DNA of 64,000 nucleotides from Heterotrichella gracilis (Eukaryota; Sar; Xanthophyceae; Tribonematales; Xanthonemataceae). Each line of letters starts with the position of its first letter. Within the stretch, counting starts at the first letter, position 1. The position numbers and the translations under genes are program-made. The stretch is from the NCBI GenBank assembly GCA_032358255.1, contig JAULBX010001003.1:1-64000 (forward strand), in the 5' to 3' direction. Below, one piece after another: positions 18,735 through 64,000 of the stretch. Under the pieces are notes generated by a model that saw nothing but the letters and a program-made list of their open reading frames with translations, ran no database searches and had not been told where the DNA came from.

Positions 18735-21700
18735 ATGGCTTGGGCACTGAACAGGAGCTTCCTAGCCTACGCAGTGCTGCTGTTCGTAGCCTATGTTGCT
18801 GTAAAACGGTAAGTGTGCGTTATACGCTTCTGCAGAAGGCCTTGGACACGCAACTGAGAGGTGTGGTGCCGTGTGCAGCTTGTGTGGGTTGATAGTGTCC
18901 CAGCTTGCAAGTAGCAAGCGCTTCAAGATAAAAGTTGGAGCATTGGGGGTTCTGAGGCTGCAGCAGGCGCGCATATCCTTTGCCAAGGTGCGAGCGGCCG
19001 GGGGTTTGTGCTTGTTGCCGGGTTGGCACGACTTTGCAGCAGTGACACTGTGACCTATCGCAGGGCCCCATTGCCGAGATTTTCGTCAAAGACATCCTCA
19101 TAGCATGGAGCAACAACCCTATCAAGTTGGTCAGAAGCTTCCTGAGCTCCGTCTTTGCCCTGCGGATTGGCCTCCCTATCAAACTGAAGGGGGTGCGGGT
19201 AGTCATCCGGACCCCTCCCAAGTTGGACGAGCAACCAAGCACGAAACCTCGGAAGCAGCGGAAGCACCCACCCGAGGGACTAGTGCGACTGGCCCTGGCT
19301 TTAATGCAGTATGTGTCTGTCATCGTGAAGGAGCTAGTAGTCATTCACGAGGTAAGCCCCTGTGCTTGGAAGTCGCACTGAGATCGTTCGGCATGCATGC
19401 ACTTGTGCTGACCCACACTCAACCGGTTTGCGCGGCAGGAAACGGGGGTGCGCGTGGAGCTGAAACGCCTGGAGGTCGCCCTCCGTGGTTCAGGGCTGTT
19501 TGCACGGCTCAAGTGCCACACACGAGCCACCGGGCTGACGCTCAAGCTCCCTTTCCACGGTAGGTGCTCTCGACAGCAGCACCCCTGTCGTGTGACATAT
19601 GCATGCATTGTGGGAAGCCCGGCATAACGCTCGGTGGGTGCGCGCAGAGGTCGAAGACGAACCCAAGCTGCGTCGGTCGGGCACTGGGTCCAACCCCACG
19701 CCTGTTCTGCAGGTTTCACACGTGGCGCTATCTGCTGTCTGCTTGATACAGCGGTACGTGACACCGCACTTGTGACACATAGCTGCGCACACAGCATACC
19801 TATGCGGGGTATTGTCCTCGACCAAGTGGCTGGAAATGCCACAGCACTGCACGGCATTCTTGGCATTCCTACCCACATGCATTGGCATGCAATTGCCAGG
19901 GGATTGAGTCATGGGTGGTGCGTCCAGGGGGCGCAAGGTGGTGGGCAAGGCTGTGACTGTGGATATTGGTGTGGTCACCCTCACGCTTGCACAGCATGCG
20001 CTGCTGGCCCTGGCGGTCATGCGGGCAGTCAAGAAGGCCAAAAAGGCGGAGGCGCCACCACCGGCAGCGGTTGCCAAGCCCAAAAATCAGCGGGACTGGG
20101 CGGCAGCAGTGGAGCATCTGCCTGAGGAGGTGAGTGCCGTGCATACTATGCCATGTATATGTTCAGCATTGTGGATTAAGAGGCTTGCATGGCAGGGCAT
20201 CATGGACCATGCATGGCATCATGATCTTGGGCATGACATCGGTGTATCATGCGGCATGAGTCAGGCATGACTCTTTTCGCATGCACATGGTCATCTAGGT
20301 TGTTTGTGTGCTGCAATTCGTGCCCTCGCATGCGAAAATGCAGATTGTGGCCCGCACATGCCGCTCCTTTGCAATTTGGCTTCAGCATGGCGAACCCCCA
20401 CCCCACCCTCCCACACCAGCCCCCCGCACCCGCATGCTCACCCCGCATGCACCCCACCAGGTGGAGCTGCGCGTGGCGCGCATTGAGCTGTGCAGCGAGG
20501 CCCCCGCCTCCCCCCACCTGGACATTTGCGGCAGCTGCGAGGGGCTGGTTCTGGCAGGCTCCCCGCAGTACCAGGCGGCCAGCGAGGTACCCGAAACCCC
20601 TGGCAGCTCCCTCCCCAACGAAACCCAGCTATACACGTTCGCGGCCACCGTGGGCGCGGCGTGCGTGAGCGCGGGGGTGGAGGGCGCCACCCCCGCGGGG
20701 TTGATGCACTGGGTGGGCGCCGCGCTGCAGCTGCGCGTGAATGAGTTCATGCTGGGCCTGCCCCCCACCAAGGGCCTGGTGGCACATGTACATGTGGACG
20801 TCAACGACCTGCAGACCAGCGCGTGCCCGGGGCAGGTCCAGCCGGCGGTTACTGCGGGCAAGGCGCTGGCGCAGGCGGTGCGGCAGCGGCTGGGGGTGGT
20901 GATGGAGCAGCGGCTTTGGGAGGCAGCGCTGGGGATAGCCAGCCCTACAAAACTCCTGTCCCTGTCCTCCTCCCTGCAAATCATCCCTCCAGCAGGGCCA
21001 TCTTCCCCACGTCAGGTTATACTTCCTCCTGTCACACTCGCACCTCCATCCACACCGCCCCCGCCGGAGATTGCCACAGCCAGCAGCACTCCCGCCTCCC
21101 CTGAGCCCTCCACCCCTTCCGAGGAAACCCCCGAAACCCTAGGGTTCAACTGGGAGCTGTGCGTCCAGATGGGCCAGGGCAGCAGCCTGAACGTGGTGCA
21201 GGGGGATGGCACACGGCTGTTTGCCATGGAGGTGGGCGTGGCCGCGCTGCGCATGGTGAGCGTGGCGTTCCACCGCTGGTGCAGCCAGGGGCGGTCGCCG
21301 GCCAAGATGGGGCGGGAGGGGGGTGGCGCGGGTGGGGGCCGGGGGGCGCCCCTGCTGGAGCGGTTCATGTGCCAGATGGATGTGAAGCAGGTGGCGGCGC
21401 AGGTGGGTGCGGGGTGGGAAGGGGAATTTTAAAGTAATCCATTTATTAATTCAAATAAAGCATTAGAATTATTTTCTATCCTGATTTATTATAGATGGTG
21501 GCGGGATGGTATGCTTGGCCTGTAGTGCGGGCTACTGCTCAGATGATGCCTGGTAGACATGAGTTATGTCAACTAAGCATACAGTAATTCATGTTCACGT
21601 CATGACGTCACTTACTGTATGCTTACAGTAACATAACATAGTTGACATAACCCATGACATGACACGATCCGCACCAGTGCATTGTCTATCTCAACATACT

Positions 21701-30700: not shown

Positions 30701-33700
30701 AGATGAGTAGCTTGCAGGCATGAACATGGGTGGCTTCCCCCTTTGGTTTGGCAGGCGAGTTGTGTGCCATGTTAGCTGTCTTCCCCTTTTTTGAAAGCTG
30801 CATTTCAGAAGTTGCCCATGCACAGCTTGCGCCACTCAGATCTATCCATGCAGGCCTTCTGCAATTTGACTTTCTCTCCCTAATGCCAACAATCGTATAT
30901 ATACAAAATAGTATCTTTCCCTCGCAGGGCGCCTGAACCCTCAGGGTTGGCTGATGGTGGTGAAAAGGGGGTGTTGTCGCCCACGCGGACCATGCGCCCT
31001 GCTGTATCGCTGGCTGCTGCGCTGGCCAAGGGGGGTGCAGTGGTACAGGGGTTGAGCCAGGCAAAGGGGCCAAAGGCGGCTGCAGGTAAGGAGGGTAGGG
31101 GGCTGTTTGTGGTTTAAGTGCAGGTGGACTGGGGGTTGTCTGTGGTCTCCATTGCAGCGTGGACACCAGGGTTATGTAATGGCCCCTTGTTCAGATGCAA
31201 GGTCTAGCATTGGCCCCTCTGCCAGCATGCATGTGACATGTGGCACCACCAACGGCGGTGCATGCATCCACACCAGCACGGTGCATGCATGCCACACCGC
31301 TTCGAATATGCGTTGTAACATGTGTTGACTACATACATTTTACCCCCATACAGCTGGCTAGCCATAGTCAGTTGCCCAGCTGCTCCATCCTGGCACTGGC
31401 AATACCAGCCTCCTTCCAGTTGCGTGAACGCAGCCCACGTCCTCCCTTGCACAGGTGGCGAGGACGCCAATGGCTTGCTGGCCCTGCTGCTGCAACAGGA
31501 CGCAGCGGCAAAGGAGGAAGGGGAGGAGGTGAAGGATGGGGAGGGCAGCCAGGAGAGTGTCAGCGGTCAAGGAGAGAGGGAGTGGGGTGGCGAAAGGGAT
31601 GGGGAGGGCACCGAGGGGGGTAGCCAGGGGACGGGGGAGGATGAGGGGCAGGATGGCTACAAGCAGGTGTGGGGGAGAACCCTTAGATTACCCCTAGTAC
31701 CCTTGAGTATTTCTGTCCGCCCTTGCCTGCAGAGGCATGACCCCATGCAGCGAGAGCAGGTGGCCCATGTACGCACCACCATCACCATCAATCATAAACC
31801 AGACGATACATTATGAGCCCTGCACTGTTATAACCAACATATTGCAGGTCTTTGGTTTTACATTCTTGATCCACCATTTCGTATACATGTTTCTTTCGTT
31901 TCTTTATATCATCCCCACATCTTGTGTATAATTTTGTTTTTCCCCTGCCCACTATTACCTGCCAATCAGCCCTCCTCCCTCCCCCGCAGCACATGGCCCG
32001 CGTGAAGGAGGAGCAGGTGGCACTGGCTGAGCTGGCGCGGGTGACCCGCTTCACCCTCCAGGTGTCGTCCTTCCAGCTGTGCGTGAAGGCGGAGCAGGCG
32101 CAGGGCCACTTCCTGCTGGCGGCTGAGGGCGGCAGCATGGTGGGCCAGCAGCTGCCCAGCGTCAACCAGTCGGTCATGACGTTCAACCTGGAGCAGGTAG
32201 GGGTTTTGATGGATATGTGGACGGTGGGATGGGTGTTGGGTTTTGGGTTTTAATTGAACCTCAATCCTACTGGTTTATGCTGGAGCAGGTGGGTGTGCAT
32301 GAGTGCACCTCTGGTGGGGTATTGGCTGTGGGATGGAGATGTTTTTGGGCAAAGTAGCTGAGCAGTTTTGTGTTAATGGAGCGGCTATGGTATAGCCTAC
32401 GGTACTGGTCCGCAATGCCCAGGGACTTTTTCTGCAGTGCGGCACCTTCTACTGACTCCTTCACCCTTTGGAACTGTTCCTCGCCTCTTCTAGGCATACC
32501 TCCCACCCACCCTCACGCACCCCCCTTGCAGGTCCAGGCCTATGTTGCCCAGACCGACATCGACCCAGATGCGCCGGTGACGTGGCTGGCAACAAGCGGG
32601 GGGGCAATGGCGCCGGTGGTGGGGGGACCCGTCGCAATGCGCCGCATTTTCAACCCCTTCTGCCTGCAGCTGCGCCACACGCGCACCGCCTTCAGGCCTG
32701 TGGCTCAACCACAGGGGGGCCAGCCACACAGGCCAACCAACGGGGAGGAAGTCTTCCTGGAGGTTAGTTAGTTAGTTAGTTAGTTCCCACGCGACTTGAG
32801 GTCCTGCTGGAGTAAGTCAGCCCATGTGGCCCTTGGCTTACCTACCCCCTTTGCCCCCTCTACCCTACCAACACCATACATTTAGGAACGCTATCGTCTG
32901 ATTCCTGGAGGTGATTCCCCTGTAATGCAATGTAACATGGTTAGAGTAGTAACGATCATATATACCCCTTCAAGGCACGTGAGGGAATGAACCACTGTCG
33001 CCTGGGAATGCCTGACAATGTGATTACATGTGGACACGCCATTTTGGGTGTGGATATGAATCATCCACGGGCATGTTTCGCTTATTCCTTGCCTTTTTTT
33101 CACTGCCAACCCATTTTGCAGCATCACAACACCAATACCCACCCATCACACAACTACCCTGCATGTACATTGCCCCCACGCTCCCCTCCCTCGCCCCGCA
33201 GGTCCCCGAGATCTCCACCCTCATGGACTCCCGCGAGTTTGAGATCCTGACCGACGTGGTGGGCAACACGCTGCTGGCCAGCCCCCCTGTCATCGACCTC
33301 GTCACAGGCGAGGCTGATGTGTGCGCATCCGCCGAGGAGGAGGAGGTGGAGGGGGCCAGGATGTTCTATGTGGCGCTCAAGCAGGAGCTGCACTGCCTGG
33401 AGAGGGAGGTAGGGTGTGGGGTGCTAGGTGTTGGAGGGCTTTTTTGGGGTTCGCACTGTTTATATGTGGCAGGAGCTGCTCTGCCTGATAGAGGGGTATT
33501 GTTGGGTTCTCATGGTCTGCTCACAAGGGCCAAGGTTAATATATAGTCCAAATGTTGTTTATTTACCCTTGCAAGGGCTTGATGCCGTCTGTGTGGCAAT
33601 GAGGGCTCGGGGGTGTACACTGTACAGCAGGGTACAATGCATTCCTTGTTGGCAATGCATATCCAAAATGGCGCCATTTTCCCTTGCACGATTACCATAA

Positions 33701-36700
33701 TGACTGGACTCGTGCCTACCCCCTGTGCAGCTGCTGTCGGTGAGTGGACAGGTGTCTGGTCGGGTGCCCGCTCGCCCCAGCGGCCGCAAGAGCATGCGGC
33801 GCTACAGCAGGGGTGCAAGCATGGATGCAGGCCAAGTGGGGCTGCTGGACCTGCTGGTAAGAGTAGCGGGCGGCGGTGCAGGCTGTAGTTTTTTTCCCGG
33901 ATTCCTGCTCTTGGTGCATCTTCACACGTCCCCCCCATGTGGTGCATGGCAATGGCAATGGTCGATATGCATTGAGTTCACACCAACACCACATGGTCAC
34001 ACTAATCTAGCCCATTGTATCAGCTATTGTAGTAATGTGCCATTGCTGTGTGTAGCCTCTGCCACTTCTAATGTGGCTTTACAAAGCAAACTATTTGCGC
34101 AGCTTTTGCAGGCCTTATCTGTGGAGCAAGTAAGCATCCACACTTTTGCTGCTTGGATGCACATATTGGACACGCGTTTGCTGGCAAATGTTCATCTATT
34201 GGAATACAAAGTATATGCGATTGGAACAGTTATCTGCTGGCCTCCCATTTGCCCAACAGCACAATTCTCCCATCCAGGGCACGGATCTCCCCCCCGCCGA
34301 CCCCCGCTCCGAGCCCACCTCCGCCATGGAGGCATTCTTTAACCAGCTGGCGGCACGAGGGGGAGGGGCGGAACTGCGGGCGCGCGGGCCGCTGGCTGCT
34401 GGCCGGCTGCTGGTGCGTTGGGCTGAGGAGCAGCAGGGTGCAGGGGCGGTGAGCCTGGAGAGGACGCGGCAGGCGCTGGTGCAGCACAAGGTGGGTGGAG
34501 GCGGCGGTGGCGGTGGGGGTGAGCCTGGAGGAAGCGCCAGGCGCAAGTGCATACATGGTGGGTGGGGGTGGCGGTGGGGGTGGGGGATGGGGGCGGTGAG
34601 CCTGGAGAGGAGGCCCCTGGCTCTGATGCAGCACAGAGTGGTGGATGGGGTGAGGGTGTCTGATGGACATTTTTTGACCCTGCCTGAGATGCACCCTGCG
34701 ATGCGTGTGTGATTTAGAAACCCTGACTTTATGAATCCCCACCCTCCCATGCTTGACACCCTCCCCTGCCCCGCCTCCCTTGCAGGCCATTGGCCGCAAG
34801 CGCCAGGGCAGCCGCCATGCCAGCAAGCTGCTTATCCAGGTGGAGGCCATCCACTGGATCATGTGCCACGACAGGACGCCCTTCATGATCGCATCGCTCA
34901 CTGGGTTCATGCTGGAGCGCATGCGCAACCCGGACCAATCAGGTAGGGGGGCAGGCAAGAGGGGGTTGCTGCGGGATGCATCTCACAAAATGACCTGTCC
35001 AGAAATCCGTGTAGTACCATCTCTTACCATGTCCCTTTGGCCACATGCGCTTTGTGAATCACTGTATACAACTTGCCAGGACACCACCCAAAAGCGCAAA
35101 AACCTTCTTTGCTTATTCAACAGACTTCCCTGCACCCCCTTTCCCCCTTTCCCCAGGCCTCATGCGGTTTGTGATCCACCGCGCCGAGGTGAAGGACGCC
35201 ACCGGCAAGGTGGGCCACGCGCCCGGCATTCGCGAGGGCACCATCTTCACTGTGTGGAACCCCACCGCCTCATGGGAGGCGGACGACATGCTGCGGGTGG
35301 TGGCGGTGCTGGGTGCGCCCACTGAGACGCACCAGCGCTACGAGCACATGGACATCATCATGCACCCCATGGTGGTGCACCTCACGGAGGGGGTGGCAAC
35401 CAACTTCTGGGTAAGGGGTGTTTGGGGTTGGGGGGGACTAGCTTTGGGATATGGGGAGGAGGTCCAAGAAGGAGGAGGCCATTCAGGGAAGGGGGTTGCT
35501 TGTCGATTAGTAGAACCAGAGAAGTAAATGAATTTCTCTGATGCGGCTGTTATAAGCAATGCTGTGAGCATCCGCAGGATAATATAATCATGACTGTGTC
35601 TGCAATGATAGCGCACGCTATAACCCCACCTGTACTATTTAAATTTGCTCCCTACAATGATGTGGCAGAGGCCGGTGCCCATTTTGTAAATTTCATGCAA
35701 TGTAATCATACTTGATATACTTTTCCTCCCCATTTTTCCAGGAATACTTCTTCCCCAAGGAGGATGACGCAGCCAAGCGCCAGCAGCGGTGGTTCAAGTC
35801 TGTGGCGCCCCCCTCGGGTAAGGCCTCCCGCCGCACATCGGCAGCACAGACGCAGCCGCAGGCGCTCAACAGCACAGACAGCACAGGGGGTGAGGCAGAC
35901 AGTGCAGGGCAGGGGGATACTCCCAGGGGAGAAGGGGAGGGAGCCTTGTCGCCGGTGGCGGGTGCGTGTCCCAAAGTGGGGTGCGGGGGAGGTGGTGGTG
36001 GTCAGTGCTGTATGCATCATGGCCATCCTGCTGTAGTAGTTGAAGGTTGTCTTTAGTTGTATCTGTGCAAAACAGGTTTTGACCCGCGAGGCTTTGTGTC
36101 TTCCGATGTGTGCAAGCTGGCTGTACTACTGGAAGGCATGTAGCAAATCCACACGGTGGTGACAATCATGCATGGCCACAGCCGCAACACACTAGGCAAT
36201 TTAAACCCAAAACAGACCAGACGCTCATGACCTGTATGGCACGCTGTCCCTTGCAACCACCGCACATCCCACCACCCCCGCACCCACACCTCATCCCTAC
36301 CCCCACCCCTGTCACCTCACCGCCCCACCCCCCACTTCCCCAGCCTCCTCCCGCCGCATGCGCCTGGGCCACAGCCGCACCCCCTCAACCTCGCTGGACT
36401 CACCCACAGCAGCCGACACCCTGCTGTCAACCGCATCAAATGGGCTGCTCACGTCTGGCGGCAGCGGGCCACTCAGTGGACCAGGCACAGAGCCTGCGGC
36501 CCTCATGGAGGCGGCTCGGCGGGTGTCAAGGCACACCTCCACGCAGTCGGATGAGGACCTGTCGGTGGGTACAAATTACCCCACAACCCTAGCTCAGGTG
36601 CAGGGATACCTAGGTAGGGTTTGTATATGTGAAGGCTTTTGTCCACCCAGTCGGATGAGGACATGTCGGTGAGTGCAAACATACCCTACCTATCCCTTCC

Positions 36701-39700
36701 ATGATTCAGAGAACCCTGCCAACCCATTGCCAGTGGGAGGGGAACCCTAACTAGGGTTTATATCTGTGAAGCCTTTTGTGGCGCATGTGTCGTGCGATTT
36801 GAGTGTGGACTGGATGTTGGTGACAGTCCTCCTAATCCTAAGGATGACCTGCAGAGCCCATGGGTTGCAGAGCCCATGGGTGGAGAGCTACCTGCTGGCA
36901 ACCCTACCCTGAAACCTGATCAGTATCTTTGTCCCTCCGTGCGCACCTCCACGTCATGTTGATAGGTGGCCCCACCCTCTGCATCCATTGCCTGCCCCCC
37001 CCCTGCCTGCACTGGTCCCTACTAATGCGATCAGCGGTTGTCGTCTCTCCCTCTCTCGCCCCTGCTGCCCTTCCTCCCGTGCGTGACTCTTTGTCCCCTC
37101 CTTGCCGCAGTCCTTCCACCTCCCCCCCCGCAAGAAGCTGTTTGTGCATGTGCGCTTCAACCGCTTCCACTGCCGCATGACCTTTGAGGGGCAGAGCACA
37201 AACATCAACAGGTTGTCCTTCAGGGACCTGAAGATCGTGCTGGACAACAGGTGGGGGGGTGGGAGGGAGGATTCTCAAATGCGCAGGGGTCGATTAACTT
37301 ATCCCTGAATGTGACTGTCAAATAAACTCTTGTAAACTCTTGTAAAAAGTATGCTGTATGTATATGGACGCCATTGGATGCCATGTGTGACATTCACTTC
37401 AATGTGGCACCTACTTTGGTACTTCTGATGATCAAATGGGCTGATTTACCAACCAAACCACTGCAACACTTATATTGCTATTTGTGACATTTAACTGGGC
37501 CAACCCGCCGCCATGACCATTCTAACCTGTGGCACCCTTGCCTAGGGTTTACGAGAACCTTGATGGCCGGTGGCGCGACCTGTTCAACCGCCTCAAATGG
37601 GACACCATCAAGAGCGTGGTCAAGAGCGTGGCAGGGCTGCAGGGGAAGAAGTTCAAGGTGGGGGACAGGGGAGGAAACGGGGGGATGGGAGTAGAATAGG
37701 ACGTGGGGGGAATTGTCACCCACATTTGGCAGAGGTGCTACCATACCCTGGCGTTGTTATGCTGCATACGATGCAGATGGATTGCATTCTCCAGCAGGTG
37801 TGCTGGTTGCACGCCTTGAATGCACGTCGTTTTCCCTTATAGGTTGCTGATTGCTGCATGTAGAAGCAACTTGCTCCTCATCCTGGGCAAATTTCAGCAT
37901 GCCCATGCCTTTTCCTCGCACAAACGTCACCACTCTTTCTCTCCTACCTCCCTTCCCCCGCCCACGCCCGGCCCCCCCGTGTCCCCCCCCCAGGAGCTTA
38001 TGCAGGCCGCCGACATACCTGACGAGGATGTGGCCCCTCGCCCCTCCTCCCGCGGCCTGTTTGGCCTCAGGCGCAGGCGGGCAACCAGCGGCGATGATGA
38101 CGAGCCATTGGACCTGGAGGAGAGGAAGGTGGGTGGGGGTGTGGAGGTGGGGTTTAGGTCGGCCGTAAACCGTATGTGGTGGTTAGAGCAATTATGCCCA
38201 TGGATCTGGAGGAGAGGGTGGTGGCGGTGACCTGGACCCAAAACCCTAGGCGCTGGTTGGAGCAAATATGCCGATGGACCTGGAGGAGAGGGAGGTGGAA
38301 GGTGGCGGGGTGGGGTGGAGAGGGGAGGGGAGGAGAGGGGAGGACAATGTGAACCCACATTGCCGGGGCTGCTGTGACATTGGTGGAGCTCAAGGCGCCG
38401 CATGCTGCTGACACCACACCAGCCACCCAGTACATTCACAGTCCATCATCTCAGCCAAACCCTAGGTAATGCCGATGGGCTTACCTATGTAGAGCTCGTT
38501 TGCTGCCCTCCTCACGCCCCTCTCCCCCCCTTGCCCCCGCAGCTCCTCACCAAGGCCAAGCTGCTCCTTGGCCCCCAGCACGTGGTCAAGATGGTCACCA
38601 GCGGCGTCACCAATATGCGCCACGCGGTGGGGGAGACGGTGGACGCCATGGGCGACGCGGTGGGGGATGCGGTGGGGAGCGGCGCCAAGGCCATCACCCG
38701 TGTGCGCTCAAGTGTGGTTGAGCGCATCCACAAGGTGCAGTCTGTGGCCATACACGGCAAGGAGAAGCTGTCGGGGAGCGTGCACGGGGATTCGCGGCGC
38801 GGGGTGGGGATGGGGAGCATCGATTTGGATCCCGAGACCGCGCTGCGCATGCAGCTGGGGCTGCAGCCTAGCCTGAGGCGGGGCTCGCAGGACCAGGAGG
38901 GGAGCTACTCGGCGCATGGGAGTGCTTCAGGTGGGGTGGGGGGTGATATGAGTGTTGTGGGGAGAGGAGGGAAGGGCGGGTGAGTTGTTGGACGGCTGTT
39001 TGTGTGCCTTCTCTGTGCCAACGCCTGCTGCTGAGGTGTGATTCGTGCATGCCATGAGCTTGGTCGGAGTGAGTGGCGCGGCGGTCTTGGATGAAGCCTG
39101 GCCACCACTTTAGGTGGCAGGCGGTGGTTGAGGCCTAATTGCTCACGTGGTTGTTGTGTGATTTGAGCTGGTAATGTAAAAGTGTGCGTGTGGTTTTGTG
39201 CCAGGCTCGCGGCGGGGCATTGAGGTGGGGGGCGAGCGCGGCGGCAGCGAGTCGGGGGGTGCGGGGCGCGGGGGCAGCAGCCGCTACCAGCGGTCCGTGA
39301 GCGAGGACATGGAGTCGCTGCAGCTGAGCAAGCAGCGCAGCAGCGGTGGCATGTGGGGGGAGGGGCAGGGGCTGCCCCCAGCCAGGATGCAGGTGCCTGA
39401 GCGGATCGATGAGGGGCTGGTGTGGGGGGAGGTGCAGGTGGGTGCGATGGAGGGAGGGGGGGGGAGGGGAGGGGGTCCTGTGTACCAAATGGAAGCAGTC
39501 ACAGCCAGTGACCACACCAGTGCAGTCCTGCCAGACATGGGAGTGTCAGGAATGGCTTTGGCGCTGCCACCCTTGCATGCCTCCTTCCCTGTGCCCCCCC
39601 TGCGCTCCAATCTATATGCTTTTTGCATGTCCTTGCCACTGCATGCTGTCAGTACCGTCATGCTACTCGCATGGCCTCTATCTGTGGTGGCAACAGCAAC

Positions 39701-53993: not shown

Positions 53994-56900
53994 ATGTCGA
54001 CGATACACCAGATGATGTATGCAGGGACTAACATCCGGAGGCCGTCTAGTGTGGGCCCCACGGAGCACCAGGGCGCCCGGTCAGCGACCCTGGTGCAGAT
54101 CCTGAGTGACATCAGCCGACCGGGGAGCCTGGATAGGCGGAGGGAGGGGGAGCGGGCCCTGAAGGAGTACTGCGAGGCCGAGATACGGGAGCTCATGGGC
54201 GAGGCGCTGACCCGGTTTCTGGAGGAGCTGCGGAAGCGGATCCGGGGGCTGATTGCCAGGTGGGAGTGGCATGCATGCGGTTGGCATCAACTGGCCCAGT
54301 GAAGAGGGTGCCATAAGTGCTGTATGCTGCTGTGTTCCAACTGCACTCACGATGGTGTCTTTCCAGCTGCACAACGCAAGTGAATTCCCTTTGGTCAAAC
54401 GCCACAGTGGTGCGCATCTGCCAATCCCCCCTTGGCTCAAGCCTAGGCTAAACCTGGTGCAACCCCGTGTGCAGTGCTGACCAGAATGAGCGGCTGGGTG
54501 GCGTGCTTGCCATTGACGAGCTGGTTGACGTTAAGGTAGGTTCACCCCCCTTGCACCACCTCCTCCACCCCAGGAGATACAACACATGCATATGCCACCC
54601 GCAAGGCCCCGCCCATGCCCCCATCACCCCACCCATGTGCAACCATGCACGGGAAATTGCCTCACAAAGTCAACGCAATGATTGGAAAAACAGAGAAAAC
54701 GCAAACTCCCCATAGCAATCTCTCACCGCTCACGCCGCAATTCCACCCCTGGTCAAAACCCGACACACACAAACCCTCCCTTCTCTTTCCCCCCCCTTGG
54801 AACCTGACCACTCCCCCTCTGTGGTACCAGATGCTGGGTGAAAGCTCCGCCAGCATCAAGGCCTTTGCAGATGCGCTGCTCCAGGTGTTTGACTTCCCCT
54901 CCACAGACCCCACAACCCTAGAGGTGGCGGCCAAAACCCTAGGCCACATTGTGCGGGCGGGCGCGGCGCTGGCAGCGGACGTGGTGGAGGAATATGTACG
55001 TGCTCATGCAATAAGCCTGTACATATGCACTTGAACATGCACCAGTGGGCAGCATGCCAGTCACATCTGCAAGCTCATGCCTTGCATGGCTGGGTGGAGG
55101 GGCATGGTGTGCTAGGGTTGCAAGGCGGTGTAGTACACATAAGCAGCTTGGAGAGCACTTAAGGATTTCAACCCCAGACAGGCATCACAACCGCACCCAC
55201 GTGTGCAAACATGGCCCACGCCCCGTCACACACACGCACAGGCCACGCTTGCACTGTTGCCCAAGATGCAACTCGTGTCCTATGCAACCACATGTGCACA
55301 CCCAGGTGTACCCATGTGCACCCACATGCACAACATGAATGCGCCCAAGCTCGCCCATATGCACACCCACATGTACCCAAATGCACCCTCTCACCAGCCT
55401 GTGCACACCCACGCCAGGTGCACATCTCGGTTGAGTGGCTCCAGTCCAGCGACAAGCAGCAGCAGCGCTACTCCGCTGTCCTCATCCTGCGGGAGCTGGC
55501 GGAGAATGCACCCGCCATTTTCAACATCCACGTCAAGCTGTTCATTGAGGTCATCTGGGCGGGGCTCAGGGACAGCAAGCTGCAAGTGAGGGAGGCGTCG
55601 GTGGCGGCGCTGAGGGTGCGTGGCTGGAAAAACCCTAATGGGAGAAACCCTGAGGGAGTATTCAAGTAGGAGGCTCTGCGGGGGGCACCATGGATGGCGT
55701 ATGGGGCTGCATGTGGTTGAGTACTTCTTTGCAGACTACTCATGCCTCATGCCGTACTATATCATGTTGCTTGCATGCAATCCACCAACATGGTCAGATG
55801 AGCAATAAACCCCGAGATTTTGCGCCGACGCACTCTGCCTTGACAACCTATCTACCACTTTAGGATGCCGTAAGGTTCTTATCTCTGCCTACAGCAGGAC
55901 ACGCCACACACCCTCCCCCTTCCCTAGGCACACACCCCTTTACATGCTGCACACATCCCCTGAATCCCCCACCCCCCTCCCTCCCGCAGGCCTGCCTTGT
56001 GCTGGTTGAGCAGCGCGAGACTCGGTACCGCGTGCAGTGGTACTACCGACTGTTTGAGGAGACGCGCCTGGGGCTCATCCGCCCCGCATTCCCAGAGGCG
56101 GTGCACGGGTCGCTGCTGGCGCTGGGGGAGCTGCTCAACCACACCGGTGAGGAAATGGCCTTTTGGGGGGAGGGGTGTTGGTAGGGTTTGGCGGAGGGTT
56201 TCGGAGGTTTAGGGCATGGCATGGTGCTGGGGGAGCTGCTCAATTACATTGGCGATGGTGTGTTATGCAAGCAAGTACGTTCCAGCATGACAGCTGGAGA
56301 ATACGTGGCCATTACTACACCGCGTTCAAAACCTGCTCAGATTGAAAACCCTAAACCCTAATCGTTCCCTCTGCAGGCGAGTTCATGCTTGCCCGCTACC
56401 GCGAGGTGGTTGAGACTGTGCTCAAATTCAAGGATGCCAAGGACAAGATGATCCGCAAGGCGGTGGTGGCGCTGCTGCCGCGCCTGGCGGGATTTGCACC
56501 CGAGCGCTTTGCCAGCACCTACCTTGCAACCGCCATCCAGCACCTACTCAATGTGCTGAAGAACCCGGTGGAGAGGGGGCCAGGTGGGTGTCTAGGGTTT
56601 GGGAGAACGATTAGGGTTTAGGGTTTGCCAGCACCTACTTTGCCACCGCCATCCAGCACCTGCTCAATGTGCTGAAGAACCTGGTGGAGCGGGGGCCAGG
56701 TGGGCCTAGGCTTTAGGGTTTGGGAGCATTTTTAGGGTTTGGGGTTTGTCAGGGATGGGGAGTGGACCAGGTGGGTGGGGTGTTAGATTAACCCTTAGGG
56801 AGGGTGTCATAGGGCTGTACATATTGAAGAGCAACGAAGGATGTGAATAGAGGGCCAGATGGACGGGGGTTGTCCGCAGCAAATACAACCATTCCAGCAG

Positions 56901-59900
56901 TCCCTGTGGTGGAGCAACCCATCAGTGCGCACTTCCCCTTCCTCCCCCCACCCCACCCGCAACCTTCCTGGCCCTGGGAGACATGGCCAGTTGGACAGGG
57001 GTTGCCCGCAGCACATATAATCTGCGGTGAAGCATATCATCAGTGTGCACTCACCCTTTATACCATACCTCACCATTTTCCACCCCACCCGCAGCTTTCC
57101 TTGCGCTCGGAGACATGGCCATGTCGCTATCAGCGGTGCGCAGCGGACCAGCAGGCATGTCCCGCTCCCTGCCCGCCATCGCCGCACAGATCCGGGAGGC
57201 GGTGTCGGCAAAGGGCCGGGGGCGCGCCGCGTGCCCCGAGGCGCTGCAGTGCGTGGGGACCCTAGGCAGGGCTTTGGGGGCTGACTGGCTGCCCTACTGC
57301 AGCAGCCTGCTTGAGCCCATGATGCTGACGGGGCTGAGCGAGACGCTGGTCAAGGCACTGCATGTAAGGGTTGATGAGGGGTTTTGCTGGGGGTTTAAGG
57401 AGGTTACTTTTGGAGAGGGTTGCTGGTCAACATGCTGCAGGTGAATTTTATGTGTGCATGGGAAACCTTTACCTTAGTCCCGGCGTGCAACAGCGATTCC
57501 CATTCCTCCTGATTCTTCACACACACAAACCTAGCAGCCCACACCATCCGCACAGGCATCCCACCCACTTGCTCCCCTCCTCCCAACCCCAGGCGATAGT
57601 CGAGGCCCTCCCTGACCTTGTGCCTGTGGTGCGGGACTACCTGCTGGACCTGCTGTCGCTGGTGCTGGCGAGAAGACCATTCCTGCCAAACTCGCCCGCA
57701 GCAATGGTGCAGTCGCTGTCCTCCGCAGTGGTGCAAGGTAAGGGGTGGAAGGTGGGGAAGTGGGGACACATGAAGGTTGTAGCGGGGGGAGACAACCCAG
57801 AGACGCACCCTGGAACAGGGGTTTCAGTCCATGACATGTTGCTGTCGCCATGCTGGTGGTGCATATCAGGTTCATCCAGGATTTAGTTCCTGGACGAGAC
57901 TTTGAAAACAGTGGCATGTGCACATTTTCGCTAGTCCTTGCTAATCTCATCTCCCCCTCACACACTCACCCCTCTCCCCCCTTGCACCCAACCCACAGGG
58001 GAGGTCCAGGGCCCTGCCCTCACCAAGCTGGCCCTCCAGACCCTGGGCACATTCGACTTCACCCCATACTCCCTCTTGGAGTTTGTGCGGGACCACGTGT
58101 CCCCCTACCTAGACGACCCTGATTCATCCATTCGCAAGGCGGCGGCGCTGGGTGGGGTGCATGTGGTCGAGCGCCACATCATGGCGCACACCGGCAGGGG
58201 GAGCAATGGGGGGCTGCTGGTGGGGGGTGGGGGGCAGGTGGCCAATGGGTACCAGGGGGTGACGGCCATGCAGCACAGGACCATTGACAAGGTGGGTGGC
58301 GGGGATGGGGGTGCAGAGGAGGAACTTAGGGTGGGTAGTTTGCCTCAAATGCCAAGAGTTACGTGGATTTGAAGAGCCACGATTTGCCAGTATGTACTTA
58401 ACACACTGGACTATCATGACCCTATGTTTTGTGCACCGTCTGTGTTGGATAAAGCTACAGATACCCATAATCCTACCTTTTCCTTGCGCAGATTGTTTCC
58501 CGCCTGCTCATGGCGGCAGTGGCCGACACCTCAACTGGGGTGCGGCGAACCATACTGGACGCCCTGCATGCCACATCAGCACTGGACAACCACCTGGCGC
58601 AGGCAGACTGGTAGGTGGCTGGGAAAACCTAGGGGAACCTTAGGAGAACCCTAGGGAACCTGTCTAGAGTGTGGATGAGGCCTCGAGATGTGTGGGGAGG
58701 TTGAATGGGCAGCTGACTGGTTGGCAGATGGACCATCTGAGATGGTGCATAGGGCTGGAGGCGGCTTGTGAAGGATAGGATTGCGTGGTGTGGCGCCACC
58801 ATTGCGGCTGCATCCCAAATGTTCTCCATAGGTTCTGTACGCCGCAGCCATAACCCCTAAGCAGGGCTTTAACACGCCAGTTAGATTTTCCCCTCTCCCA
58901 CATCCCCTCCCCACCTTTCCTGCAGCCTGCGCTCCCTGTTTGTGACCCTGAACGACGAGGCGGTCACTGTGCGCGCCCTGGCTGTGGTGCTGGCTGGCCG
59001 CCTGGCGGTGGCCAATCCCGCCTACGTCATGCCCGCGCTGCGCCGCCACCTCATGCAGCTGCTGTCTGACATGGAGCACTCGCCGGACTCAAGGCACAGG
59101 GAAGGTGAGGGTGTGCTAGGGTTTTGGGGTAGGGTTTGCTTGGGTTGGGGGTTCCATGCAGCTGCTGTCAGACATGGAGCGCTTACTGGACTCCAGGCAC
59201 AGGGAAGGTGAGGGTTTTGCTAGGGCCTGGGTAGGGTTTAGGATAGATGCTGACATGCATACACCGAAGTTGGTGTAGTGGGGTTTTAGGCATTAGGCTG
59301 GGCAACCTGCTAGGCTGCCGCGCCGTAAGTCTTAACCCTAATTGTCGAACCCTGACCCCTAAACCCAAAGCACCCCCCCTACTCACAGAGTCGACCTACC
59401 TGCTGGGATGCCTCATCTTAGATTTTAAAATCTAAACCGCAAACCTATAATTGCCCCCCCTTCCCGCAGAGTCCGCCTACCTGCTTGGCTGCCTCATCCT
59501 GCACTGCCCGCGCCTGGTGCTGCCCTATGTGGACCCCATATGGAGCGCGCTGGTGGCAAAATTGAGGGCCGCGGCGCAGGCCTCGCCCCCCGCAAATGCG
59601 TCCCAAATGCCGGCAATGCAGGGGGCGCAGCAGCAGGGGCAGCAGCAGGTCCAGCCAGGGGGGCAACAAAAGGCAATCGCGCAGGTGAGCAGGGGAGGGT
59701 GGGGCGTTCTGACAGGCTTTTCTTTGCATACATTTTTTCTTTCGCAGGGGCACCTTTTTTGCTTCTTGCTAACTGCAGCCAAGAAGGCATTTCTCACTAT
59801 CAATCCGTGCAATTTTGTGGCTGGATTCCCCCGTTTTTATTCTGTACTCGCCCTGAGCCCAATTCCTCCTCTGCCTCCCCACCAAAACCCTAAATCCCAC

Positions 59901-62900
59901 GCAGGCGGGCGACGAGAGCGCGGTGGTTGCCTCGGTCCTGGCCACAACCGGCGAGCTGGCGCGCGTGGCGGGGGCCGCCCTGCGTGGCAAGGTGAACGAC
60001 ATTTTCCCGCTCATCATCGACGCCATCCAAGATCCCGTCAACAGCCACAAGCGCCTGGTGGGGGTGACCACGTTGGGGCAGCTGGTGGAAAGCACGGGGG
60101 TGGTGGTGGCGCCCTACAGCGCCTATCCGCAGTTGCTGGGGCTGCTGCTGCGGATGCTGAACGAGGGCATGCCCAAGGTCAGGCGGGAGGTGATGAAGGT
60201 GAGCGTAGGAATTAGGGTTTGGATTAGGGTTGAGGTCCGGTTTAACGTTGGGGTTCAGACCTGTAGGGAACGGCAAACGAGGTGGTTGCTTGGGCTTGCA
60301 TGTGGATTCCTCTGCTCTTACATTTACAGTGTACTTCTTTCCCTTGTGTCTGGATATGTGGGATTGGTGTGTGTAATTGGGGAAAAGTTGGCGGGAAGGA
60401 GGCTGCATACACCTGAGCATGCAGCAATGCGCCCGAGCACACAACCCGCCACCTGAAATCTCCCGCATTCCGCAGGTGCTGGGCATCATCGGCGCACTGG
60501 ACCCCCACACCCACAAGATGAACCAGGCCAACCTCACGGGTGAAGGCGTGCTGGAGCGGGAGGGGGTGCGGCCGCAGCGCCCGGGCCACACCGCCAACAC
60601 CATGCAACCAGTACAAGGAACCCTAGGAACCCTGCCGGAAGACCCTGGGGTTGACCTCCTGCCCAGCGCAGGCTTGACCACCAATTCAGAGGACTATTAC
60701 TCCACTGTGGCCATCAACGCGCTCATGCGGCTGCTGAGGGATGGGTCGATGTCTAGTGTGCACGACGCCATCGTGACCGCGCTGTTCAAGATCTTTGAGT
60801 CCATGTCGATGTCGTGCGTGCCCTACCTGCCGAAGGTGAGGCGGGGCAGAACCATAAAACCCTACAGTGTATTCTTGCCAATCCGCAGGTTGACTGTTGA
60901 AGGTTCATATGGATGTTGGGTGCACTGTACCAGGCAACATAAGTAACTTCAGACCAAATTGACAAAAGGAGAGCCATTTCACGGCAATGAATGGCTCAGC
61001 AGCATTGGGTCACTCTAGTGCGTTGGCCGTGAGCACAACCCAACCGTCCCAACCCACCTGACACCTCGCTCCCTTCCATCTCCCCTCTGAACACAAACCC
61101 ACCCACCCGCAGGTCATGCCCGTGCTGTTCGGCGTGATCCGCGCCTCTGGCGACCTCCTACGCGTGTACCTGTTTGCCCAGCTCACCTCCCTTGTTGGCC
61201 TGCTGCGCCAGCACATGCGCAAGTACCTGCCGGACCTGCTGCACCTGGTGCACGTCTACTGGTCGCCGCACTGCCCGCCCTCGCTGCTGCACAACCTGCT
61301 GCAGCTGCTGTCGGCGCTGTCAGGTGCGTGGGGTAATGGGTAGGGTTTTGGAGGGGTATTGCGTAGGATATGAGTGTGGTTGGGGAATCTGCTGCAGCTG
61401 CTGTCAGGTGGGTGGAGTGGAGGTGTGGGAGGGTTTGGGAGGAGCTGGGTAGGTTGGGCAGGGTTTGCGTAGGTGATGCGCAACCCGCTGCAGCTGCTGT
61501 CAATGTCACTGGGTGTGCGGACTTTTGGGGCAGGGGTTGGGCAGGTTCTTTTTGGGAGGGTTTTCATCCGGCTCAAATCTCCCTACGTTAACCGCACAAA
61601 TCCCCCTCCCTCACCCCACAGTCTGCCTGCGCGATGACTTCCGCCCTTTTCTCCCCGACCTGCTGCCCAAGTTCATTTCCCTGTTCGGCGACGCGGAGCG
61701 CAGCGGGCACTACGACATGGTGCGCGTGGCGCTTGGGGCGCTGGAGGCGCTGGGGCCATCGCTGGAGGAGCACTTGCACCTGCTCACGCCTACGCTCATG
61801 CGGATCGTGTCGCCAGGTAAAACCCTAAACCCTAGACTCTGGACCCTTAACATAGGCCTTAGGGGAGCACTTGCACCTGCTCACGCCCACGCTCATGCAG
61901 ATCGTGTCGCCAGGTAAACCCTAGACCCTGAACCCTAGGGGAGAACTGAAACCCCTGACTTCTAGAGGACGGCTGCTGGGTTCCTGGTAGGAGACTATCT
62001 GCATGTTAAAGTTGATGCAGATCATGGCGTTAGGTGAACCCTAAACCCTAGCCAGCTTGCCAAGCAGGTGGACGGAGCCAGACCACCTGGTGGCTCCAAA
62101 AACAATGCCCAGCATACCCCATGACACTCCCCCTCAGCTCCAACCCTAGTAACCCCCTTCCCTCCCATCTCCAGGCACCACCGCCGTCCCCCTTGAGATC
62201 CGCAAGGCCGCGCTGGGCTCCATGCGCCGCCTGCTACCGCGCATGCAGCTGTCGGGCCACGCATCGGCGGTGCTGCACCCCTTGCTTAGGGTTCTGGATG
62301 GTCCCCACGACGAGCTGCGCAAGGATACCCTGGACACTGTGTGCTCGCTGGCGCCGGCGGTGGGGGCGGACTTTGTCATCTTTGTGCCCACCATTCGCAA
62401 GGTGAGGGGGGTGGAACGGGTGGCTGGGGAGGGATTTGGTGCGATGGGGATGGTGGAGAATGTGTGTGCTCGCGGGGTGTGGCTGTGGGAGGGGAGGTCA
62501 TACTCAACACTGCATTTTTTGATCAGGTTTTTATAGCCCACCAGGGGACTGAGTCAGCGTAATAAGGGTGTAGTGCTCAATCCCTTTTTTCCCTGCTCCC
62601 AGATTGTGCAGCGCCACCGCCTGTCCCACGACCGCTTCAACCTGCTTGCCTCCAAGCTGCTCCTGTCAGAGCCCCCCTGCACCAGCGACGTGGAGGACTG
62701 GGAGGCGGCCAACGCGTGGATGGATGACCTCATCCCGCCTGATGCCGATGCCGCGCTCAGGCTGCTGGCGGAGCCGGCAGGTGGGTGGAAAGTACCCTAA
62801 TGCAGGGTTTAGGGTGTCTGGGGATATTACAATGCACATTTCTGGGGGGTGAACCCCATCTCAGGGTTTGGGGATGGCAATGGTTCATGATGCGGGTCCT

Positions 62901-64000
62901 GCATGATAAATGTATTGCTAACCTCGTGAACTTGCGCCACTTCACAACAACGCCTGCACTGCAATGTCTATTGGCCATTCTCCCCAATACCACCACACCT
63001 GGCCTGACACCCATCTCCCGACCACCCCCCAGGCCCCCCCTCCGCCCAGCGCCATGTGGTTAACGAGGTGAGCCTGCGTCGCGCCTGGGAGAGCAGCCAG
63101 CGCAGCACCAAGGAGGACTGGGCGGAGTGGATGAGGCACTTTGCGGTGGAGCTGCTGCGGGAGAGCCCAAGCCCCGCGCTGAGGGAGTGCACGCGGCTGG
63201 CGCAGGTGGGGTCTAGGGTTTGGTTGAGGGTTTGGTTTGGGGTTTAGGGGTTGCGGTGGAGCTGCTACAGGATCTGCCTGTCTGGATGCAGCATGGCAAA
63301 AAATACGGGTTACATCAGCTCTCCCCCCCGTCTTATCTCAAATCCATTATCGCTTGCAGATGCAGCTGACCACAGTACTCACCTCTCCCCTTCCAATTTT
63401 ACAATCACCCTCCTCGTTTCTGGTTTTTACTCTACCCTCGCTCCAGCCTACCCCTGGCACATTCAACACCCATGTATCTCTCTCTCCCTCCCCGTCTCCC
63501 CCCTCCCCCTTCTCCTCCCCCCGCTGCAGATGCAGCCCACCATGGCCCGCGACCTCTTTCCCGCCGCCTTCGTCTCCTGCTGGTCAGAGCTGGAGGCGGG
63601 GGCGCAGGAGGCGCTGGTTCGCTCCCTTGAGGCCGCGCTCGCCTCCCCCACCATACCCCCTGAGATTGTGACCACGCTGCTCAACCTGGCGGAGTTCATG
63701 GAGCACGACGAGAAGAACCTGCCGCTGGACTACAGGTGAGGGTTTTGGGTAGGGTTTGGTTACAGTCTGGGGTAGGGTTTGGGGTCGGCATGTGAGGTGA
63801 GTTCATGGAGCACAACGGGAAGAGCCTGCCGTTGGACTACAGGTGAGAGGGTGGGTAGGGTCTGGTTAGGGTCCGAGGTCGGGTTAGGATTTAGGGTAGG
63901 GTCTGGGTAGGGTCTGGGTTTTGCTGTTAATCTGGCAGGTGCAGAGCTGGCGGATACTTTTGCTTGGCTACGCCCATTGCCCTTGCACCGTACAGGGCGC
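53994..64000 (+). CDS. TOR: Target of rapamycin (TOR) kinase, N-terminal HEAT and start of FAT (gene continues past right edge)
   Basis: Twenty exons join in phase and give about 1,372 residues: 53994-54259, 54475-54535, 54831-54995, 55418-55615, 55990-56146, 56377-56583, 57095-57363, 57593-57737, 57999-58291, 58492-58610, 58926-59104, 59470-59684, 59905-60198, 60476-60835, 61113-61323, 61622-61816, 62175-62401, 62603-62780, 63033-63205, 63530-63735. They follow human mTOR from its N-terminus to about residue 1,420: [13 protein letters not shown] (human NERKGGILAIASL), [110 protein letters not shown], and [17 protein letters not shown] with [10 protein letters not shown], where the FAT domain begins. 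The kinase, FRB and FATC parts lie outside the window. TOR couples nutrients to growth. TOR introns are rich in TTTAGGG-like motifs and ghost exon edges. Confidence 0.97.
56508..56704 (+). repeat. 81-base copy of the TOR exon-6 end and donor
   Basis: Bases 56508-56588 (end of exon 6 plus donor) recur at 56624-56704 with five differences in 81. Three of the five would be silent if the copy were read in the same frame. The spacer between them contains TTTAGGG-like words. Confidence 0.9.
56860..57130 (+). repeat. Tandem partial copies of the intron end, acceptor and TOR exon-7 start
   Basis: The stretch CACCCCACCCGCAGCTTTCC with GGAGACATGGCC at 57082-57123 has an earlier copy at 56948-56990 in which the acceptor AG is lost (CCCGCAACC). 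Upstream parts (GGACGGGGGTTGTCCGCAGC at 56860 and GGACAGGGGTTGCCCGCAGC at 56994) repeat with the same spacing of about 134 bases. Confidence 0.75.
59052..59499 (+). repeat. Ghost copies at both ends of TOR intron 11
   Basis: The exon-11 end and donor (59052-59110) recur at 59155-59213 with six differences in 59. At the other end of the same intron, the exon-12 start (AGTCCGCCTACCTGCT at 59470) has an earlier copy at 59389 (AGTCGACCTACCTGCT), preceded by its own CAG. Confidence 0.88.
61767..62040 (+). repeat. One near-identical and one partial ghost copy of the TOR exon-16 end
   Basis: The 55-base exon/donor boundary 61767-61821 recurs at 61864-61918 with two differences. A third, more decayed copy lies at 62014-62040 (GATGCAGATCATGGCG then TTAGGTGAACC). 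Each is followed by ACCCTAAACC- or ACCCTAGA-type sequence. Confidence 0.88.
63350..63847 (+). repeat. Ghost copies flanking TOR exon 20
   Basis: The exon-20 end and donor (63692-63740) recur at 63799-63847 with four differences in 49. On the acceptor side, CTTGCAGATGCAGCTGACC near 63353 resembles the true CTGCAGATGCAGCCCACC at 63524. The downstream intron is full of TAGGGT words. Confidence 0.75.

What the first reader, a model, noticed from the sequence alone, without database searches (positions are those of the whole stretch)
18735..63900. Exon edges with splice sites are repeatedly copied into the neighbouring intron
In SABRE, HCP and TOR at least a dozen introns contain a degenerate copy of the adjacent exon edge, usually including the donor or acceptor, about 75-190 bases from the original. 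Examples on the donor side are TOR exons 5, 6, 11, 15, 16, 19 and 20 and SABRE exons 29, 31, 35 and 38. Examples on the acceptor side are HCP exon 6 and TOR exons 7, 12 and 20. Local tandem duplication across AG|GT junctions is a known route to intron gain, but such density in one window suggests an ongoing process that lengthens introns and creates decoy splice sites.
Basis: partly seen in the sequence, partly recalled or inferred. Interest (0 to 1): 0.72.

Follow-up and report, generated by a model that had tools for sequence, protein, structure and literature searches.

The report
Exon edges duplicated into neighbouring introns
In this green-alga-like genome short stretches spanning the border between a gene's coding part and its intron have been duplicated in place many times, leaving decaying decoy splice sites often separated by telomere-like repeats, which exposes a way in which introns grow.

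Summary
In 324 kb with self-trained gene models, a degenerate direct copy of the exon edge lies within 320 bases on the intron side of 36 of 473 donors and 24 of 473 acceptors (expected 0.05 and 0.00). At 640-960 bases it is 0 of 444 and 0 of 459; inverted copies are 0 of 478 and 0 of 479. Offsets are 67-308 bases. Copies decay neutrally while originals stay constrained.

Junction-spanning duplications outnumber intron-only ones 65 to 7; a neutral simulation predicts 45%. Telomere heptamers (TTTAGGG) sit just inside intron ends, mostly with the G strand leaving the exon, 45-fold favoured over anagrams at junctions with copies, 7-9-fold without; they lie between original and copy in 36 of 60 cases.

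Best reading: staggered breaks at exon-intron borders, filled in and rejoined, give short tandem duplications that splicing tolerates, with telomeric repeats added or already there. The duplication is well supported; the break and telomere steps are inferred. No RNA or relative was available.

The parts
33381..33495 (+). SABRE donor 33408: exon-edge original 33381-33406, copy 33469-33495 (offset 88)
34443..34645 (+). SABRE donor 34490: original 34443-34499, copy 34590-34645 (offset 147), with a third degenerate copy between them
   Evidence: the final gene model reads through this array as exon, so it is not among the 36 donors and was counted as exon-only
36538..36779 (+). SABRE donor 36564: original 36538-36584, copy 36642-36689 (offset 104); further intronic match 36603-36642 to 36740-36779
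38109..38318 (+). SABRE donor 38146: original 38109-38150, copy 38275-38318, and a match 38167-38224 to 38241-38298; the predicted 60-base exon 38250-38309 may itself be a copy, so its acceptor 38249 (counted among the 24) is doubtful
44019..44330 (+). HCP acceptor 44290 (exon starts 44291): about 3.6 copies of 84 bp of intron tail + AG + exon head
56117..56243 (+). TOR donor 56146: original 56117-56138, copy 56222-56243 (offset 105); the copy's donor reads GC
56508..56752 (+). TOR donor 56583: 56508-56631 matches 56624-56752, a complete head-to-tail tandem duplication (offset 116) with telomere-like repeats at the unit end
56853..57121 (+). TOR acceptor 57094: copy 56853-56989 before original 56985-57121 (offset 132); edge score 35, just under the cut-off, so not among the 24
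59052..59239 (+). TOR donor 59104: original 59052-59137, copy 59155-59239 (offset 103)
59373..59498 (+). TOR acceptor 59469: copy 59373-59417, original 59454-59498 (offset 81), at the other end of the same intron
61285..61502 (+). TOR donor 61323: original 61285-61312, copies near 61386 and at 61474-61501
61767..62051 (+). TOR donor 61816: original 61767-61833, copy 61864-61929 (offset 97, 94% identical), older partial copy 62015-62051
63692..63918 (+). TOR donor 63735: original 63692-63782, copy 63799-63888 (offset 107), telomere-like repeats in the spacer and after the copy
54012..64000 (+). TOR gene (43 predicted exons, continuing beyond the window on contig C12), one of the richest genes of the sample in copies

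Best explanation
Stretches of mostly 65-230 bases that straddle an exon-intron border are tandemly duplicated in place, repeatedly at some junctions, on many contigs. SHOWN: copies are direct, close by and on the intron side, and the inner copy decays as neutral sequence while the outer one stays constrained, so splicing most likely hides the event from the protein. SHOWN: junction-spanning events far outnumber intron-only events, and telomeric repeats lie at intron ends and often between original and copy. INFERRED: the events come from staggered double-strand breaks at exon-intron borders whose overhangs are filled in and rejoined, which duplicates the overhang. Both intron ends expose a strand that is G-rich and whose 3' end points away from the exon, the kind of end that telomerase and the CST/Pol alpha fill-in machinery act on; this would explain both the telomeric repeats and the preference for junctions. 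The result is intron growth by about 100 bases per event and an accumulation of decoy splice sites.
For: Donors 36 of 473 and acceptors 24 of 473 against 0.05 and 0.00 expected; distance controls 0 of 444 and 0 of 459; deep-exon controls 0 of 145 and 0 of 154. Inverted copies 0 of 478 and 0 of 479. In 8 of 60 cases the aligned length reaches or exceeds the offset, i.e. complete head-to-tail units. Exon-part identity 0.887 (donors) and 0.891 (acceptors) against intron-part 0.830 and 0.788; mismatches by codon position 93/1024, 87/1029, 165/1025: a freely mutating copy against an original constrained at positions 1 and 2 gives a neutral divergence near 0.085 and an expected intron divergence near 0.17; seen are 0.17 and 0.21. 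Junction bias 65:7 against 45% predicted (p 1e-15), 23:4 at 85% identity or more (p 2e-5), 12:3 at 90% (p 0.007); by 10-kb block 17 against 3 with 3 ties (p 4e-4). Telomere rotations against anagrams: 45-fold at junctions with copies, 7-9-fold without, 2.2-fold at +80 to +140, 0.8-fold in exons. Telomere heptamer in the spacer (first 70 bases at most) in 36 of 60 cases, against at most 59 of 388 donors and 40 of 397 acceptors without copies (first 60 bases); spacer only 12, after-copy only 2 (p 0.013); in the 25 bases before the copy 16 of 60 against 1.7 expected. First 30 intron bases on the strand leaving the exon: 33% G at donors, 37% at acceptors, 27-28% further in. 19 of 60 junctions have two or more copies.
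Against: In 24 of the 36 cases with a telomere heptamer in the spacer one also follows the copy, so the tract often came first and was duplicated with the rest. 22 of 60 cases have no exact telomere heptamer in either place. Within the hot genes alone the link of heptamer and copy is not significant (donors 14 of 23 against 17 of 44, p 0.12; acceptors 5 of 11 against 15 of 53, p 0.30). The C strand also piles up after donors (99 hits in the first 40 bases against 188 for the G strand), and 8 of 36 donor spacers carry it. In 17 of 60 cases the exon part is at least 90% identical yet less than 60% of the expected intron part aligns, which a simple tandem duplication does not predict. Opposed single heptamers within 60 bases are not mostly head to head (10 against 19). 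The simulation treats loci as independent, lets all junction-spanning events survive and rests on my gene models. No RNA, relative or empty site was available.
Confidence: 0.6

Rival explanations
1. Tandem duplications strike at random; those within exons are purged, those within introns decay twice as fast, so only junction-spanning ones stay visible. The exon-edge pattern is then pure survivorship.
For: Neutral decay of the copy and the exon against intron divergence fit it; donor and acceptor sides are both affected; exonic tandem repeats with offsets that are multiples of three exist.
Against: A simulation with this decay built in expects 45% junction-spanning among junction plus intron loci; observed 65 of 72, and 23 of 27 at 85% identity or more. 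Model-free: 45-mers from mid-intron recur in 8 of 225 introns, although both sides are open to them, against 28 of 211 donor and 16 of 204 acceptor edges of the same introns.
Confidence: 0.2
2. Telomere-like tracts are splicing elements (G-run enhancers near donors; branch point and pyrimidine tract near acceptors) and selection for intact splicing context decides which duplications are kept.
For: The intron part of the unit is never below 37 bases at donors or 25 at acceptors; tracts sit within 40 bases of splice sites; acceptor-side spacers carry in sense almost only the pyrimidine-rich strand (11 against 1), donor-side ones both (16 G, 8 C).
Against: At intron ends without copies the seven commonest of 140 anagrams are exactly the seven rotations of the genome's own telomere repeat. 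It explains retention, not the scarcity of intron-only duplications.
Confidence: 0.3
3. The copies are alternative or mutually exclusive exons, or functional decoys under selection.
For: Splice dinucleotides are mostly kept.
Against: Mismatch is only 1.8-fold higher at third positions and 31 of 36 exon-part indels shift the frame; offsets modulo 3 are 10/15/11 and 9/5/10; in the mTOR alignment, read by eye, most copy-bearing junctions of the second half of TOR are bridged without added residues (exceptions: 6 extra residues near 64874 and 13 near 66221, probably misplaced small exons or donors of my model). Retention of GT and AG is close to what neutral decay gives.
Confidence: 0.05
4. Assembly artefact: two divergent haplotypes joined at exon edges.
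For: The genome is a draft of 903 contigs with what looks like a foreign contig.
Against: Both haplotypes would be coding; the copies are frame-broken and mutated at all codon positions. Two or more copies at 19 of 60 junctions. A 301-base query over one array matched only itself in the genome.
Confidence: 0.03

Closest known systems
Small tandem duplications from fill-in of staggered breaks (CST and Pol alpha-primase; PMC8355091, abstract and passages seen)
   Same: Short direct duplications whose size follows the overhang; CST also serves telomere ends.
   Different: Here concentrated at exon-intron borders and accompanied by telomeric repeats; the enzymes were not tested.
Interstitial telomeric sequences inserted during double-strand-break repair, a few with direct target duplication at staggered breaks (PMC7215372, passages seen)
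   Same: Telomeric repeats inside chromosomes, a few of them beside direct copies of the target.
   Different: According to that paper the share within human introns (31%) fits random insertion; here tracts pile up within 40 bases of splice sites, and duplication beside them is common.
Intron gain by tandem duplication of an AGGT-containing exon piece (PMC4974935 and PMC2891723, passages seen; Rogers 1989 and Hellsten 2011 only as cited there)
   Same: Tandem duplication involving splice signals.
   Different: No new intron is made; an existing junction with its intron head or tail is duplicated and the intron gets longer.
Introners (transposon-made introns; passages in PMC12730881, otherwise recalled)
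   Same: Growth of intron content by repeated events.
   Different: No shared dispersed family was seen; the copied sequence is the local exon edge.

Membership tests
Tandem duplication at staggered breaks | Direct, nearby copies only | tested here: met
   Inverted 0 of 478 and 0 of 479 against direct 36 and 24 of 473
Tandem duplication at staggered breaks | Unit repeated head to tail without foreign spacer | tested here: inconclusive
   Complete in 8 of 60 units; in 17 of 60 the exon part is well kept but less than 60% of the expected intron part aligns
Tandem duplication at staggered breaks | Dependence on CST, Pol alpha-primase, Ku | not testable with these tools
   none
Interstitial telomeric sequences from break repair | Repeats identical to the genome's telomere repeat, away from chromosome ends | tested here: met
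   TTTAGGG arrays at the very start of contigs C70 and C140 and internal matches on many contigs; 209 overlapping matches to four perfect repeats, backward control 0, first 100 places listed; rotations are the top 7 of 140 anagrams at intron ends without copies
Interstitial telomeric sequences from break repair | Inserted between duplicated target sequences | tested here: inconclusive
   Spacer only 12, after copy only 2, both 24, neither 22 of 60
Interstitial telomeric sequences from break repair | Empty orthologous site in a relative | not testable with these tools
   The genome search reports no relatives for this assembly
Intron gain by AGGT tandem duplication | The duplicate makes a new intron, so the copy of the upstream exon end lies at the intron's 3' end | tested here: not met
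   Copies lie 67-308 bases from the original in introns of median 395.5 (donor side) and 378 (acceptor side), and most bring their own splice site
Introners | Similar intron sequence dispersed in the genome | tested here: not met
   In the 324 kb sample 110 near against 32 far matches; a 301-base query over one array matched only itself; a 5.5-kb query matched elsewhere only in pieces of at most 73 bases, many over its telomeric tract. Only these regions were tried genome-wide, whose best matches were to one 70-base repeat
Alternative exons | Open, frame-keeping copies | tested here: not met
   31 of 36 exon-part indels not multiples of three

The most novel reading that the evidence does not exclude
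Telomerase acts routinely on broken exon edges in this organism. A break at an exon-intron border gets TTTAGGG added to a 3' end and is rejoined with its overhang duplicated, so that introns grow, and may be born, as healed chromosome breaks. Intron heads and tails would then be fossil telomere additions, mostly oriented as telomerase would lay them on the two exon ends.
Probability: 0.22. Interest if true: 0.88.

Novelty: new variant of a known kind. Interest (0 to 1): 0.64.

Why it matters
How introns lengthen and how new splice sites arise is usually inferred from events long erased. Here 36 of 473 donors and 24 of 473 acceptors carry a fossil that can be dated, because the exon-side original is held by selection and serves as a clock. 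Rate, size spectrum, breakpoints and the fate of decoy splice sites become countable in one genome. The link to telomeric repeats at intron ends would tie intron growth to the repair of broken DNA ends and to telomere machinery; none of the listings I saw for that combination was about such a link, and PMC7215372 (passage) names the effect of intronic telomeric repeats on splicing as still to be tested.

Tried and rejected
Pure survivorship of random duplications: simulated and rejected as the whole story. Duplication anchored on a G-quadruplex and running in one direction: 8 of 36 donor spacers carry the C strand yet the unit still runs into the exon, so strand direction alone fails. General templated insertion: inverted edge copies absent. 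A second haplotype of hot regions, to get empty sites: none seen, but one search did not list even the query's own place, so it is weak. Telomere fusion as the rule: (TTTAGGG)2 facing (CCCTAAA)2 occurs at 5 places and the opposite order at 0 genome-wide, but single heptamers in the sample show 10 against 19, and a head G with a tail C in one intron is only slightly more common than chance (10 introns, odds ratio 2.3, p 0.048); this stays open. Literature searches listed related mechanisms; none of the titles and abstract starts shown described this pattern. Only listings were seen except for the five papers whose passages are named; subscription journals are mostly not in that library. The organism could not be named; green alga is my inference from the telomere repeat, the genes and the genome size. 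SABRE, HCP and TOR as gene labels come from the finding and were tested; Schiml 2016 and Vaughn and Bennetzen 2014 on plant duplications were only recalled and carry no weight here.

Rows dropped: contig C1 (20 kb, no predicted exons, bacterial-looking genes) was left out of all counts. Junctions with an exon under 30 bases or a flank under 300 bases were left out. 24 small predicted exons that were themselves copies were masked before the final gene models. The acceptor 38249 and a few pairs on C300 may be two sides of one event and are counted twice. Of the 7 intron-only loci, one is a microsatellite, one is a short minisatellite with telomere-like words, and two overlap a predicted exon by 2 bases. 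The exon-only class includes the SABRE array at 34443, which is a junction case.

Full report
What was examined. The window is the first 64 kb of contig C12 (156 kb) in an unnamed assembly of 68.5 Mb in 903 contigs. I added the next 40 kb, 20 kb of contig C2 and 20 stretches of 10 kb from other contigs, in all 324 kb. A simple gene model trained on the sequence itself gave 557 exons and 552 introns, median intron 299 bases, donor consensus AG|GTGNG and acceptor GCAG|G. As a check, it predicts a TOR protein of 2567 residues, of which a part of 1070 residues aligns to mTOR with 1105 bits. HCP and SABRE pieces were confirmed by Pfam.

Observation. Each exon edge (up to 45 bases) was aligned to the 320 bases on its intron side and, as control, to the flanks of other junctions. 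At score 36 or more, 36 of 473 donors and 24 of 473 acceptors have a copy; 0.05 and 0.00 are expected. Positions 640-960 bases away gave 0 of 444 and 0 of 459; positions 320-640 gave 0 of 458 donors and 2 of 466 acceptors; exon sequence 105-150 bases deep gave 0 of 145 and 0 of 154. Reverse-complement edges gave 0 of 478 and 0 of 479. For short exons a copy of the far edge on the other side is rare: 2 of 188 and 1 of 182. Copies are patchy: TOR and stretches of contigs C300 and C40 are rich, several regions have none. Nineteen of the 60 junctions have two or more copies.

Anatomy. Offsets run from 67 to 308 bases, median 113 at donors and 128.5 at acceptors, with no preference for multiples of three. 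In 8 of 60 cases the unit is complete head to tail, for example TOR 56508-56631 matching 56624-56752; in 17 of 60 the exon part is at least 90% identical but less than 60% of the expected intron part aligns, and the spacer differs from what follows the copy. The intron part of the unit is never shorter than 37 bases at donors or 25 at acceptors, and the exon part is shorter than uniform placement predicts (median 45 against 65). This fits a need to leave the outer splice site with its own intronic context (inference).

Decay. Exon parts are 88.7% (donor) and 89.1% (acceptor) identical, intron parts 83.0% and 78.8%. Mismatches are 93 of 1024, 87 of 1029 and 165 of 1025 at codon positions 1, 2 and 3. 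A copy that mutates freely against an original constrained at positions 1 and 2 and nearly free at 3 gives this ratio, with neutral divergence near 0.085 and expected intron divergence near 0.17; seen are 0.17 at donors and 0.21 at acceptors, over the alignable part only. Indels in the exon part number 36, of which 31 are not multiples of three. The GT is kept in 30 of 34 donor copies and the AG in 21 of 23 acceptor copies, near neutral expectation. The copies are therefore most likely fossils, not exons. In the mTOR alignment, read by eye, most copy-bearing junctions in the second half of TOR are bridged without added residues; 6 extra residues near 64874 and 13 near 66221 are probably errors of my model.

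Survivorship is not enough. I simulated uniform duplications with this decay. Among detected loci 45% of junction plus intron loci should span a junction; observed were 65 junction loci, 7 intron-only, 4 exon-only and 1 outside genes. Restricted to identities of at least 85% it was 23 against 4, and at 90% 12 against 3 (p 2e-5 and 0.007). By 10-kb block, 17 have more junction than intron loci, 3 the reverse, 3 tie. Mid-intron 45-mers recur within their intron in 8 of 225 cases. The bias is thus real, though its size depends on the gene models, on the assumption that all junction-spanning events survive, and on independence of loci.

Telomeric repeats. The genome's telomere repeat is TTTAGGG: arrays stand at the very start of contigs C70 and C140, and four perfect repeats match 209 times (overlapping matches; backward control 0; the listing stops at 100 places). 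In 399 introns of 150-700 bases the G-strand heptamers pile up in the first 40 bases after donors (188 hits) and the C-strand ones in the last 40 before acceptors (135 hits, against 15 for the G strand); after donors the C strand piles up too, less strongly (99 hits). So the strand leaving the exon is mostly the G strand. Among the 140 anagrams of TTTAGGG the seven telomere rotations are exactly the seven commonest at both intron ends without copies; per word they are 6.7- and 8.9-fold favoured there, about 45-fold with copies, 2.2-fold at +80 to +140 and 0.8-fold in exons. Genome-wide, a donor running straight into the repeat (AGGTRAGGGTTTAGGG) occurs 64 times, its backward control 0. Donors with a copy have a heptamer in the first 150 intron bases in 25 of 36 cases, those without in 101 of 437; acceptors 13 of 24 and 95 of 449. 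Within hot genes alone neither difference is significant. A heptamer lies in the spacer in 36 of 60 cases, in 24 of these also after the copy, in 12 not; the reverse occurs twice (sign test p 0.013). In the 25 bases before the copy it is 16 of 60 against 1.7 expected. One locus outside predicted genes shows a clean form, a 137-base copy on both sides of 27 bases of CCCTAAA-type repeat, with no such repeat in the 40 bases printed after it.

Mechanism. Break repair at staggered ends can give such direct duplications: fill-in by Pol alpha-primase guided by CST at 3' overhangs (PMC8355091, passages). Telomeric repeats are known to be inserted at breaks, in a few horse loci with direct duplication of the target (PMC7215372, passages). 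I infer that breaks at exon-intron borders are handled this way, and that the G-rich strand leaving the exon at both intron ends recruits the telomere-linked machinery. Whether telomeric repeats are added in the event or were there before cannot be decided without relatives; the counts suggest both.

Comparison with the known. This is not intron gain by duplication of an exonic AGGT (PMC4974935, PMC2891723, passages): the intron was already there. It does not look like an introner family. I file it as a new variant of short tandem duplication: junction-biased, tied to telomeric repeats, and frequent. Searches for precedents in print are, seen as listings.

Noticed in passing
L006, L007 (contig C1, 894 kb): GC 33% and 36%, no predicted exons; the five long open frames of L006 look bacterial by eye, three of them like sensor kinases: probably a bacterial contig in this assembly.
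   Followed up: partly
L018 8394-8429, L020 472-506 and three other genome places: Head-to-head telomeric repeats (TTTAGGG)n facing (CCCTAAA)n: 5 places with two repeats on each side, the opposite order 0.
   Followed up: partly
L021 2271-2566: 137-base direct duplication with a 27-base CCCTAAA-type spacer; possibly an unannotated exon edge.
   Followed up: no
L005 4803-4981 (C12 98803-98981), L013 9601-9914, L025 7016-7229: Mostly exonic tandem repeats with offsets 114, 147 and 135, all multiples of three and in the same size range.
   Followed up: no
window 23514-23575: Perfect 31-base tandem repeat in the SABRE region.
   Followed up: no
L014 9771-9829, L015 7841-7889 and 8646-8714: Hairpins sharing CAAGGGTAAT, possibly a small family of inverted-repeat elements.
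   Followed up: no
L017 about 2304-2375: A 70-base repeat found on many contigs, overlapping in tandem on some.
   Followed up: no
L021 4249-9670: A gene very rich in edge copies whose first 277 predicted residues have no Pfam match at 1e-5.
   Followed up: partly
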